Both the position numbers and the translations under genes were made by a program. A DNA stretch of 37,345 bases from Anaeromyces robustus (lineage: Eukaryota; Neocallimastigomycota; Neocallimastigomycetes; Neocallimastigales; Neocallimastigaceae): NCBI GenBank assembly GCA_002104895.1, contig MCFG01000526.1, positions 1 to 37,345 of the forward strand, in the 5' to 3' direction. Within the stretch, counting starts at the first letter, position 1. Each line of letters starts with the position of its first letter. The notes below the pieces were generated by a model that made no database searches, was not told the origin of the DNA, and saw nothing but the letters and a program-made list of their open reading frames with translations. This document shows, in pieces, positions 25,896 to 31,742 of this stretch.

Positions 25896-28800
25896 ATGAT
25901 AAAAATTCATAAATATATATTCCAATTTTTTTATATTATACTATTAATATATTATCATGATGTTAAAACCTCGGCGAAACAAATACTTATAAAAAATAAA
26001 GATAATAATAATAAATATTTTTATAATTTACAAAGTATTATTAATACTCATACAGAAGATAATGAATTAATCTTGAAATTTGTTGATAATTATTATAATA
26101 TGAATAAACTGCCATTATCTTTTGATATACAAATTTCATTTAATATTTCATTTATAGGGAATGAAAATGGAACAATTTTTGATTATAATAATAAATTAAA
26201 TGGATCATTCATTTTTACATTTTTTCAAAATCAGGGAGAATTACTAAAATTTGAAAATATTACTATAAAGAATTATCCATATAATAATAATAATATTATA
26301 GATATTATTGTTAAATCTGATAATTTTTTCATTTTTTTCAATCATTGTAATTTTCAAAATAATAATTATACCATTCTTTTATTGAATCTTCAATACTCTC
26401 ATTATAATTCAACAAATAATACACCTACTATTGTTTATAATGACTGCAATTTCAAGTAATATACTTTAATAATATAAAAATCTATATAAATATATATATA
26501 TACAAAAAAAAAAGAGAAAAAAAAAAAAAAAAAACGAGATATTAATAATAATATAAATATTTTTTTTAATTATATAATTTGTAATTAATGTACAAAAAAA
26601 TACACTTTTTTTATATATTATATATTTAATATCTTTTTTTTTTCATTATATATATATTATTTATTATATTATTAATATATTTTTTAAATATATAAATAAT
26701 ATAAATATATAAATATATATTTAATATTTATTATTATTATTATTATATATATAAAACAAAATTTATCAATTAAACCGAAAAAATAGTAATAACGGAGAAA
26801 AATTAATTGAAATTCAACATCCTAATAGTTTTTTTTCATATAAATCTGATAGTTATTCAATAATAAAAATGAATAATTGCAATTTTATTAATAATCGAGG
26901 ATTATTTTATTCATTTATTTCTCAAATATATATAAATAATTGTAAATATTTATACATTTTTTAACATAAAAATTTTATGTCAATTTAATATTCATAAATT
27001 GTTATTAACTTTATATATATATTGTTTTACATAATCTTAAAAAAGGTTATTTTTCAAAAATCGAAAAAAGTCTATCAAATAATAATTATGGAGCATTGTA
27101 TTATTCAGAATCAGGAAATGAATATATGTATATTAAGGATTCTATTTTCGAAAATATTAATATAGAAAGTTCGGTTCCTCTAATATATAATAAAGGATTA
27201 CAATTATTGTAAATATTTATATATATCTTTTAAGTATATGTATAATTTTATTACTATTTATATGAATTTCACTCTTATTCTCAATATATATTTATATATA
27301 TATATATTATTCATTAAAAATTTTTTTTTAGAATGGAAAATACAACATTTATAAATTGTTATTCAAATTATGGTTATTTATTTGAATCAAATAATAAACG
27401 AAATATTGTAACAATATTAGATTCAACTTTTATAAGTAAATAAAATAAAAAAAATAATAATAATACTAATTTTTTTAATAATTATTTTATTTTCAACAAT
27501 TTTATAAAATATAGAAATGATTTATTGATAAAATATACTATATATATACATATATATATATATTATCACTTTTTTATAAAAATAGATACATATACCTTAT
27601 TTAATGGTGAATCTTCAAGTTACAATATTAATAATTCAGTTTTTAAAAATGTTAAATTAAATAATTCTATACCAGCTATAGCTAATGTTAAACAATCAAT
27701 TTTTGAAATTTATAATTCAGAGTTTAGTGATATGACGTAAATATATATATAAATAATATTATATATATTTAAAAAAAGAAAGAAAGAAAGAAAAAAAGTA
27801 TTTTTACTTTTAAATGAAGATAATATTAAAATTTTTTTATTTTTTCAAAAAAAAATTTTATTTTTCTTACTATTTAGATTAGATAATGGATTATTTAATA
27901 AAGAATCATTATATAAATTTACTAATATAACAGTAAAAAATATTGATTCCAATTCAAAGGCTTTATTTTCATTTTTAAATAATAATATTAATTTTAATAA
28001 TGTTATTATTGAAAATGTTAAATGTTTTGGAGATGAAGAAAATTCTTCTTTATTATTATTTGATTCAGGAGAAAATGAAAAAAAAATTTATATAAATAAT
28101 TTAAATATTAATAATTGTATATCCAATGGCTCTTTTATTATAATAAAAGGCGATTCTTCAATATTTACATTGAAAAATTCAAATATTAATAATGTTTTAT
28201 CTTATGGATCTATTATTAATAATGAATCTAAAAAAGTATTGACAATATATATTAGTATATTAAATAATAATAATAAAAAAAGTTTTTTCTTATAATATCA
28301 TTATCATTATAAGAACAAAGAATTAATAATAATTAAAATGTATATTTATTATAATAAAATATAGATTAAATTTATGGTTTTAAATTCAAATTTTAAAGAT
28401 AACACTAATAGTAATAAATATAGATGTGGTGGTATTCATATAAATAATAATTTAAATGTTACTATTTCAAATTCTACTTTTATTAATAATGTATCTAAAG
28501 GTCATGGTGGGGCATTGTAAGATTATAATTTATTCTTAATTTTATTTTCTTATTTTAATTTATAAATATATTTTTTGAAATATTATTATTAAAAAATCTA
28601 ATCATTAATTAATATAATACTATTTTATACTATTAAATAAATAATTATAATTATAAAATAATATGCATATATCATCTCTATATAATTAGTTGTGTAACTG
28701 ATATATTAGACATAGAACTTAATATAGTATCCAATACTTTTGAAAATAATAAATCTATCGATGGTGGTGCATTATATATAATAGATAAAGCTATTAACAT

Positions 28801-31742
28801 ATTAAATAAGAATAATAATAATAATAATAATGATAATAATAATAATGATAATAATAACGATGGTGATATGATAGTTACTATAAAAGATAATAAATTTATT
28901 AAAAATTATGCTCAAAGATTTGGAGGTGGTCTTTATATAAATTTTTATAGTGTTATATCTCCAAACATAAAAGATAATCATATAAATTCTAATAAAGCAG
29001 GAGCTTTAGGAGGTGGAATCTATATACCAAAACTAAATAATAACAAATATTTACTTCATCCTCAAAATGAAATAATTAATAATACAGTAAATACTTTAGA
29101 CAGTAATGTTGCAACAAAACCTACTTATATAACATTAGAAACAAAGTTAAATAATAATTTAATAAATATAACTACAGGTAATATTTATCCATTAGAGTTT
29201 AAATTAAAAGATGAATTTGGTAATCTTATTGAAGATATTTCAAATTATTATTCATCGCTTTCTTTAACATTAAATTTAAAAGACATTAATGATAATAAAG
29301 GTGATAGCAATTTTAATGATACCAATAATAATGATAAAACTTTTGAATTATATGGAAATGTTTGTTCATTTATTAAAGGTATATTATATATTAAACAATT
29401 TTTAAATAAAAATAATAATAATAATAATAATACTAATAATAATAATAATAATAATAATAATAGTTAATAATAATAATAATAATAATAATAATAATAATAA
29501 TAATAATAATAATAATAATAATAATAATAATAATAATAATAATAATAATAATAATAATAATAATAATAATAATAATAATAATAATAATAATAATAAATAA
29601 TAATAATAATAATAGTTATAATAAAATATTATTTATTTAATATATATATATTATTTATATAATTTTTATTAATTACATATATATTTTTTTAATTTTCTTT
29701 ATTTTTTATAAATTATATATTAAAATAGGTCAATGTAAATTAAATAATTTTCAAGTTTTTGGTGAATTTAATACTTATAAATTAGTAACAACTGTAAAAA
29801 ATTATAATGAATATATAGATTTAAAATTTGATGAAATTAATATCACAATAAATGAATGTAATTCATATCAAATAAAAATGAAAAATCCAAAAACAAAAGT
29901 CTTATATTGTGAAACTCCAATATGTCCTGATACTTGTTCAAATGAAACAGCTATATGTTTACCAAAATATAGAGAATTTATAAATGATATTAATGAAAAT
30001 ATTTGTGAATGTTTACCAGGTTGGGAAGGAGAAAATTGTCAAAATAGAATCATTTTTAATTATCGGTAAAATATTTTTATAAATAGATATATATTATTAT
30101 TAAATTATTGTTATATAAATATATATATAATTTTTTTTTATTTTATATATTTTCTTTTATTAAAAAATTTATTTATTTATTTACTTATATTTTTTTTTAT
30201 TTTATATATATATTAATTTATATTTAGTACTCTTAATATAATATTAAAATTATTAGTTACAACTATATCTATAATTGTTTTATATTATATGGTATTTATT
30301 ACAGCTAAAAGAAAACATGGAATAATTAATGATATTGGATATTTAAAAATATTTACTTTTTCTGCTGGAATTCTTATATTTTTTATTAGTATATTATATT
30401 CAACTTATACTTCTTTTTTGGAATGTTCACTAAATTTTTCATTTAAACATACTGGTCTTTCATTAATTATATTAATATTTCTAAAAATTAGTTATATTAA
30501 TTTAGAATTAAGTACAAAAAAAACCAATAAAGAAAATAATTATTATTATTTTAATTCTCCTGATCTAAAAGATGAAGAAGAAGATTTAGAAATAACAACA
30601 CAATATAATAATGATTTAATTTTAGAAACGACAGATGATAAAAAACCTTATAAAAGTTATTTAAATTCAGTAAGAGTTAAAGGAAATTTAATAAAATATA
30701 GTGAAAATGTTAATAATAATCGAATAAGTAATCAATCCTCTCATACAGGAGAAATTAATGAAAATGTTTTAAAAAAAATTGAAAAAACTAATAAATTTTC
30801 AAGAATTGTTTCATTTTGTTTTACTTTTCATATATTGACAATTATTACTATGGCTTTTGTTAAATTATACATAAATATGAAAGATGGATCTATGGATAAA
30901 TTTCTTCAAGATGATAATAAGATATGGTTTTATAATTGTAATTTACAACATGCTGATTTAGTTTATAGTATGGTGGAAATGTTTTTTTTTATTATTATAT
31001 TATTAAATGGTAATAAATTGGCTGTAAGAAATAATAGATTTAAATGTATTAGATATATTACTTTATCAGTATTAATTTCGATATTTCTTGGTCCTATTAT
31101 TAATGTAACGATTCAATTTTTTTTTTTTTTTTTTTTTTTTTTTTTTAAATATATATACATAATTTTTTAATTTTTTATTCTATAAAATTATAAAAAACAT
31201 TAGAATGTTCTTTTTTTATTATTATTGTTTTTTTTTTTTTTTTTTTATCTTTTTATCTTTTAATTTTTAATATATTTATACATAATTATAAATTTGTAAA
31301 AAATAATATATTTATAAATATATTAATAGAATATTCTATTAACTATCTATTTTTTATTATTGAATATTAAATATTATAGGTTTTCAGTTACATGTTTTTT
31401 AATAACCAAAGAAAAACGAAAATAATATTTGAAGTATTATTAAATACTATTTGTTATCTAACAGTATTTATATTATTTTCTTGGGATAAAGTATATTATA
31501 TTTTAAAAAATCAAGGAGATGATCCAACAATATATTTTATATATGAAAAACATGAACTTTGTACAATTCATCAATCGACTTCATGTGGTTGTAAATTAAA
31601 TATATCAAAAGATATACTTTTAGTTAAAATAACACAATCTATCAATTATTATACTCTTTGTTCATCTATGTATGAAATTTTTAATGGAAAAATTATAATG
31701 TTTAATACTAAAACAAAAGTTAAATATTTAAAAAATTATTAA
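25896..31742 (+). CDS. Receptor-like protein 1: beta-helix ectodomain, EGF-like module, class C GPCR-type 7TM
   Basis: Eleven exons (25896-26455, 26787-26941, 27046-27208, 27332-27435, 27586-27736, 27878-28235, 28365-28516, 28690-29378, 29729-30065, 30228-31104, 31380-31742) join in phase with GT-AG borders to 1302 aa with no internal stop. Residues 1 to about 28 look like a signal peptide. About 30-700 are Asn-rich repeats with F-x-x-N and GGAL/GGGIY turns (HGGAF, DGGALYII, GGGLYI, LGGGIYI), as in Pmp-type right-handed beta-helices. A beta-rich, Ig-like segment follows, then a Cys-rich EGF-like module at 843-881 ending CLPGWEGENCQ. Seven membrane segments lie near 892-915, 927-948, 956-981, 1083-1105, 1134-1155, 1167-1188 and 1197-1218. 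C956 at the start of TM3 and C1127 between TM4 and TM5 occupy the class C disulphide positions. A charged ~100-residue loop follows TM3, and the tail holds SCGCKL. Ligand unknown. Best read as a surface sensor. Confidence 0.85.
28806..28862 (+). repeat. Asn/Asp codon repeat in exon 8 of receptor 1
   Basis: AAT runs interrupted by GAT encode a low-complexity Asn/Asp stretch between two GG-containing beta-helix rungs. The frame is kept on both sides, so the tract is translated, probably as a loop projecting from the helix. Confidence 0.8.
29410..29613. repeat. (AAT)n microsatellite in intron 8 of receptor 1
   Basis: About 200 nt of AAT with minor interruptions, lying inside the intron 29379-29728. 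The exon 8 frame stays open past the donor for about 30 codons, running into an Asn tract before a TAA at 29465-29467. Confidence 0.85.

What the first reader, a model, noticed from the sequence alone, without database searches (positions are those of the whole stretch)
25896..31742. Class C-type 7TM receptor with a beta-helix plus EGF ectodomain
Class C GPCRs usually carry a Venus-flytrap ligand domain. Here the ectodomain is a ~700-residue Asn-rich Pmp-like beta-helix joined by a beta-rich segment and an EGF-like module to a 7TM unit that keeps the TM3/ECL2 cysteines. Beta-helices often bind polysaccharides, so a plant-fibre or cell-contact sensor is an attractive but untested idea.
Basis: partly seen in the sequence, partly recalled or inferred. 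Interest (0 to 1): 0.75.

Follow-up and report, generated by a model that had tools for sequence, protein, structure and literature searches.

The report
Gut-fungus receptor with beta-helix sensor arm
This is an apparently intact gene of an anaerobic gut fungus for a cell-surface receptor that carries a long beta-helix arm and a small EGF-like knob in place of the usual ligand clamp; the design is real, but it was described for this fungus in 2016, so this is another member of a known and still untested receptor group.

The parts
25896..31742 (+). Whole receptor gene (here called recA), 11 exons, 1302 aa
   Evidence: open reading frame through all ten GT-AG introns; relatives
25896..25973 (+). 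Signal-like N-terminus, residues 1-26 (hydrophobic core IFQFFYIILLI)
   Evidence: hydropathy 2.65 over 11 residues; relatives P0002, P0004 and P0007 also start with a hydrophobic stretch
25896..26455 (+). Exon 1: signal-like start and first beta-helix part
26787..26941 (+). Exon 2, missing from the public model; relatives P0002 and P0004 keep the matching segment
27046..27208 (+). Exon 3 (beta-helix)
   Evidence: same protein sequence in P0001
27332..27435 (+). Exon 4 (beta-helix)
27586..27736 (+). Exon 5 (beta-helix)
27878..28235 (+). Exon 6 (beta-helix)
28365..28516 (+). Exon 7 (beta-helix)
28690..29378 (+). Exon 8: last beta-helix rungs with GG(A/G)(L/I)Y motifs (residues 573, 626, 655) and start of the beta-rich stalk
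29729..30065 (+). Exon 9: rest of the stalk and EGF-like module
29905..30039 (+). EGF-like module YCETPICPDTC...CECLPGWEGENC (residues 837-881)
   Evidence: profile of the family matches EGF ligands, best Epigen E 0.0024; EGF motif in 14 of 14 loci examined, window included
30228..31104 (+). Exon 10: TM1 to most of TM6, with a long variable ICL2
30424..30426 (+). Cys956 at the outer end of TM3
   Evidence: Cys in 13 of 14 aligned family rows, Ser in L024
30937..30939 (+). Cys1127 in ECL2
   Evidence: Cys in 13 of 13 family rows that cover it
31380..31742 (+). Exon 11: end of TM6, TM7 (FSWDKVYYIL) and Cys-containing tail
32979..37345 (+). Next gene (recB), cut by the contig end: signal-like start, beta-helix-like exons by eye; fused to recA in the public model. 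Not part of recA
   Evidence: no Pfam match for its first ORF at E up to 0.01

Best explanation
It is a divergent class C-type G-protein-coupled receptor of the anaerobic gut fungus Anaeromyces robustus, one of a subfamily of at least 17 loci in its genome. Shown (by sequence and predicted structure): open gene, beta-helix arm, beta-rich stalk, EGF-like knob, class C 7TM fold with the TM3/ECL2 cysteine pair. Inferred: the beta-helix is a binding surface, not an enzyme, and most likely recognises a polysaccharide or other repetitive surface polymer (plant cell wall, fungal or neighbour cell wall). Binding would be passed through the stalk and EGF module, in the place of the Cys-rich domain of animal class C receptors, to the 7TM part and a heterotrimeric G protein, probably as a dimer. 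My confidence is about 0.9 for the architecture and class, and about 0.4 for a polysaccharide or surface ligand; the figure given as confidence is for the identity, not the ligand.
Against: Pfam 7tm_3 does not match this protein. Profile-profile alignment of the 7TM parts is weak: local E 0.081, where the unrelated pair class C/MFS scored about the same (0.089); 0.0074 (probability 5%) at best after ICL2 was cut out, with other class C subsets at 0.071 and 0.15 and the MFS control at 0.49. The family's own 7TM profile does not pick out canonical class C loci (L006, E 0.33, no better than decoys). Foldseek's alignments of the ectodomain model have low TM-scores (0.09-0.24 by query length in the rows shown). 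Roughly the first 100 residues of the ectodomain model are covered by fewer than six rows and were not tested for invariant residues, and one acidic patch is nearly conserved: (D/N)Sx(E/D) at P0001 284-287 in all 8 proteins that cover it, the window's included. No expression, ligand, G-protein or localisation data. The ectodomain model lacks exon 2 and the first 68 residues.
Confidence: 0.85

Rival explanations
1. The beta-helix is an adhesin that fixes the cell to a surface, and the 7TM part senses mechanical tension or contact, much as adhesion GPCRs do, with no soluble or released ligand.
Against: The 7TM fold is class C, not adhesion class. Pfam's GPR128_N match in P0004 is a short stretch over the EGF module and below its cut-off. 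I did not search for a GAIN/GPS domain with a dedicated model.
Confidence: 0.3
2. The ectodomain is an enzyme (lyase, epimerase or hydrolase) tethered to a 7TM anchor that may not signal.
For: The best solved matches of the ectodomain are polysaccharide lyases and epimerases. The (D/N)Sx(E/D) patch at P0001 284-287 is nearly conserved.
Against: No invariant charged or histidine residue in the beta-helix columns covered by six or more of nine rows. The matches share a fold at 7-15% identity only.
Confidence: 0.08
3. Two genes, a secreted beta-helix protein and a 7TM protein, wrongly joined by me and by the annotators.
For: The public model very probably mis-joins recA and recB, so joins here can be wrong.
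Against: Two relatives align nearly end to end over both parts, though their models are predictions too. EGF and beta-helix motifs lie in the same locus as the 7TM exon in 11 of 14 loci; the other 3 have the EGF motif, and the stretch held for one of them (C100) is partly masked. Exons 8-10 run through the stalk, EGF and TM1 in phase.
Confidence: 0.04

Closest known systems
Class C GPCRs of anaerobic gut fungi with pectin-lyase fold, parallel beta-helix repeats and EGF-like domain (Seppala et al. 2016, PMC5168858; section 12 read in full, other passages seen)
   Same: Same set of domains before a class C 7TM, and Anaeromyces robustus is one of the three species studied.
   Different: I could not open its supplementary tables or figures, so I do not know whether this very gene is in its list; that paper worked from transcripts and InterPro/BLAST labels, while this gene is missed by Pfam 7tm_3 and is placed here by predicted structure.
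Animal class C receptors (mGlu, CaSR, GABA-B, GPR158)
   Same: Predicted 7TM fold, TM3-ECL2 cysteines, ECL2 hairpin, large ectodomain.
   Different: No Venus flytrap and no nine-cysteine domain seen (no such Pfam match at E up to 1); beta-helix, stalk and one EGF-like module instead.
Polysaccharide lyases of family PL6, AlgG/AlgE epimerases and phage tailspikes
   Same: Right-handed parallel beta-helix fold.
   Different: 7-15% identity; no invariant charged residues in the testable columns of the receptor family; tethered to a 7TM unit.
Chlamydial Pmp / POMP repeats
   Same: GGA(I/L)Y and FxxN repeats at the end of the helix; TIGR01376 just over cut-off in P0001.
   Different: No autotransporter barrel seen; eukaryotic intron-rich gene.

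Membership tests
Class C GPCR | Seven transmembrane helices of class C fold | tested here: met
Class C GPCR | Recognised by Pfam 7tm_3 (PF00003) over its cut-off (a detection aid, not a defining trait) | tested here: not met
   no match at E up to 1. Among relatives, P0011 21 bits, below the cut-off, and the paralogue at C74 34.4 bits, over the cut-off of 33.5
Class C GPCR | Cysteine at TM3 and in ECL2 | tested here: met
   13 of 14 and 13 of 13 family rows. The disulphide itself was not measured
Class C GPCR | Venus-flytrap ectodomain (usual, not required: PMC5168858 found no ANF domain in any of its gut-fungal class C receptors) | tested here: not met
   beta-helix in its place
Class C GPCR | Couples to a heterotrimeric G protein | not testable with these tools
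   needs an assay
Parallel beta-helix / pectin-lyase fold | Right-handed parallel beta-helix in the model | tested here: met
Polysaccharide lyase / pectin lyase enzyme | Conserved catalytic charged residues | tested here: not met
   none invariant in residues 1-535 of the model among columns with 6 or more of 9 rows; roughly the first 100 residues had too few rows to test
Chlam_PMP / POMP repeat | Repeat profile over cut-off | tested here: inconclusive
   TIGR01376 15.5 against 15 bits in P0001; PF02415 in 5 of 7 members, best 20.0 bits, below the cut-off of 20.6; none in the spliced recA at E up to 1
EGF-like domain | Cysteine-rich module ending in CxCxxGWxxxxC | tested here: met
   EGF ligands head the PDB sequence matches of the family profile, best E 0.0024 and 0.013; motif. 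Pfam EGF models stay below their cut-offs
Adhesion GPCR | GAIN domain with GPS and a class B 7TM | tested here: inconclusive
   no GAIN/GPS Pfam match at E up to 1 and class C matches fill the rows shown; no dedicated test made
Gut-fungal class C receptors with pectin-lyase fold and EGF (Seppala 2016) | Pectin-lyase fold/beta-helix + EGF + class C 7TM in a gut fungus | tested here: met

The most novel reading that the evidence does not exclude
The gut fungi use one signalling cassette (stalk + EGF + class C 7TM) under exchangeable sensor heads, and this subfamily carries beta-helix heads that read plant or neighbour polysaccharides by contact. That would be a receptor repertoire for touch and taste of fibre, larger than published counts (in this genome 113 places over the 7tm_3 cut-off, plus at least 17 loci of this subfamily, 15 of them absent from that call's list of 127 places), and, in this subfamily, reached without a Venus flytrap.
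Probability: 0.3. Interest if true: 0.65.

Novelty: new member of a known kind. Interest (0 to 1): 0.38.

Why it matters
Gut fungi break open plant fibre in the rumen, and I found no study of how they sense it. A receptor subfamily with beta-helix heads gives a concrete, testable set of candidate fibre or contact sensors. Structurally, it is a class C receptor with neither Venus flytrap nor nine-cysteine domain. The 2016 paper raised the idea; what is added here is structural evidence for class C where Pfam is silent, a corrected gene model, the subfamily size in one genome, and a stalk-EGF module shared with a canonical class C receptor.

Tried and rejected
Rejected: chance reading of an AT-rich sequence (ten introns keep phase and relatives align throughout). 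Rejected: separate genes for the two halves. Weak or negative: Pfam 7tm_3 on the window's protein. A third homology search with a 7TM alignment (A5) gave one protein, P0013, at E 1.5e-3 and no class C receptor; only the 7990 best candidates were scored. PDB sequence search with the 7TM profiles found EGF ligands but no GPCR among the 30 and 24 matches at E up to 10. hhalign of the 7TM profiles was weak: local E 0.081 for this family against class C, no better than the class C/MFS control at 0.089, after the variable ICL2 was cut out, 0.0074, 0.071 and 0.15 with three class C subsets, MFS 0.49 (global mode: 0.00049, 0.017, 0.73; MFS 0.88). The recA-like profile found no canonical class C locus above decoys. 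In the class C profile search a short wrong-frame ORF (L043, E 0.018) scored better than the best decoy. A Dicty_CAR search was meant as a non-class-C control but found nothing; GOST_TM gave one fragment, so MFS loci served as control. PMC11291939 was searched for receptor terms and held nothing relevant (passages).

Rows dropped: of 127 places with 7tm_3, 30 were fetched; L003, L006 and L041 were left out of the class C profile because the translated match held stops, leaving 27. The ORF set left out ORFs under 60 residues or with 30 or more masked ones. One search looked at 14 of the 17 subfamily loci (C35, C48 and C180 were not fetched); its class C control used 23 of the 30 loci and did not include L004, which has an EGF-like module of its own. 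In one search the TM3 count uses 14 rows and the ECL2 count 13 (L020 ends before it). One search had one exon boundary off by one base; one search corrects it.

Literature: six searches, judged from listings, abstract starts and passages, showed no functional study of these receptors in the held open-access library; subscription papers are not held.

Full report
What was claimed.

Source. A search with the spliced protein returned P0001, BCR32DRAFT_273116 of Anaeromyces robustus, 1884 aa, on a contig of 37345 bases, the window's length, identical over the searched region. The species name rests on P0001. The window is therefore a contig of an anaerobic gut fungus.

Gene model. Eleven exons joined through ten GT-AG introns give 1302 codons and a single terminal stop. 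Introns are 2-12% GC and exons 16-21%. The public model P0001 has the same protein across exons 3-10 but starts inside exon 1, drops exon 2 and runs on into the next gene. Relatives P0002 and P0004 keep a segment that matches exon 2 and end near where recA ends, so I read two tandem genes. The second, recB (32979 to the contig end), has a signal-like start and, by eye, beta-helix-like exons. Its similarity to recA is weak (best E 0.016) and its first ORF has no Pfam match at E up to 0.01. Its transmembrane part, if it has one, is beyond the contig.

Relatives. The first homology search gave seven proteins, the window's own included; a second, with an alignment, added five and a third one more. 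Apart from P0001, those with names are Piromyces finnis or Piromyces sp. E2 and the other three come from JGI contigs. These searches need shared five-residue words and two of them scored a capped candidate list, so absence elsewhere is not shown. Two relatives align to recA nearly end to end at 38-39% identity. UniRef names one, P0008, 'G-protein coupled receptors fa...', with the listing cut off there; others are named EGF-like.

Stalk and EGF. The stalk-EGF profile matches L004 at E 1.9e-7 (best decoy 0.43). L004 is a canonical class C receptor (7tm_3 124.5 bits) with a different N-terminal part. The EGF module itself is supported by matches of the family profile to EGF ligands (best E 0.0024; Pfam EGF models stay below cut-off).

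Subfamily size. The 7TM-EGF part of recA finds 52 places in its genome at E up to 0.1, which I grouped by hand into 21 loci: 17, the window included, with transmembrane matches and at least two exon matches; three with one exon only; and the canonical locus C612 (L004). Of the 14 loci I examined (of 17), 14 have the EGF motif and 11 the GG(A/G)xY motif; neither motif occurs in the 7 MFS and 23 canonical class C loci used as controls, which did not include L004. The same genome has 127 places matching 7tm_3, 113 marked over the cut-off; these are places, some with stops, not counted genes. Two of the 17 loci (C74, C81) are on that list, one of them over the cut-off.

What is known. Seppala et al. 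2016 (PMC5168858; section 12 read whole, other passages seen) report 51, 24 and 32 class C GPCRs in transcriptomes of Neocallimastix californiae, A. robustus and Piromyces finnis. About 30% have a pectin-lyase fold, sometimes beta-helix repeats, and in a few cases an EGF-like domain; none has the ANF domain. A 2021 paper (PMC8665504, passages) reports upregulation of class C receptors in Caecomyces churrovis with a methanogen and speculates on polymer binding or contact. Krishnan et al. 2012 (PMC3251606, passages) describe varied N-terminal domains of fungal class C receptors. So the architecture is known, in this species, and the ligand is open.

How it probably works. Inferred: the helix binds a repetitive polymer, the stalk and EGF pass the strain or rearrangement to the 7TM, and the 7TM signals through a G protein. 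Only the anatomy is shown. The rivals are a contact or tension sensor of the adhesin type, and a tethered enzyme.

Score. Because it is in print for the same species, I rate it a new member of a known kind, interest 0.38.

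Noticed in passing
667-9839: Large inverted repeat (two arms of about 3.9 kb, pieces 89-100% complementary, centre near 5253) holding two copies of Rpc34 (RNA polymerase III subunit) exons; either a real inverted duplication or an assembly palindrome.
   Followed up: partly
18997-20739: LINE-like element piece: reverse transcriptase ORF (RVT_1, 89.6 bits) followed by a 198-aa ORF without Pfam match, in the two 1-kb bins of 30-34% GC; the other bins are 8-24%.
   Followed up: partly
31743-37345: Public model BCR32DRAFT_273116 appears to fuse two tandem genes; recB may be a second beta-helix receptor cut off by the contig end.
   Followed up: partly
G000 (own genome): 113 places over the 7tm_3 cut-off, against 24 class C receptors reported for the A. 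robustus transcriptome in PMC5168858; the genome repertoire seems several times larger, though places are not counted genes.
   Followed up: no
L004 (C612:89200-89913): Canonical class C receptor with the same stalk-EGF module but a different N-terminal part that no Pfam family matches well; suggests exchangeable heads on one cassette.
   Followed up: partly
L018, + strand ORF near the C379 paralogue: Neighbouring ORF looks like a secreted hydrolase piece with two Cys-rich repeats resembling fungal dockerins (impression from the sequence only, resemblance recalled).
   Followed up: no
P0001 284-287 (window receptor residues 440-443): Nearly conserved acidic patch (D/N)Sx(E/D) in the beta-helix, in eight of eight proteins that cover it, the window's included; a candidate binding or metal site.
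   Followed up: no
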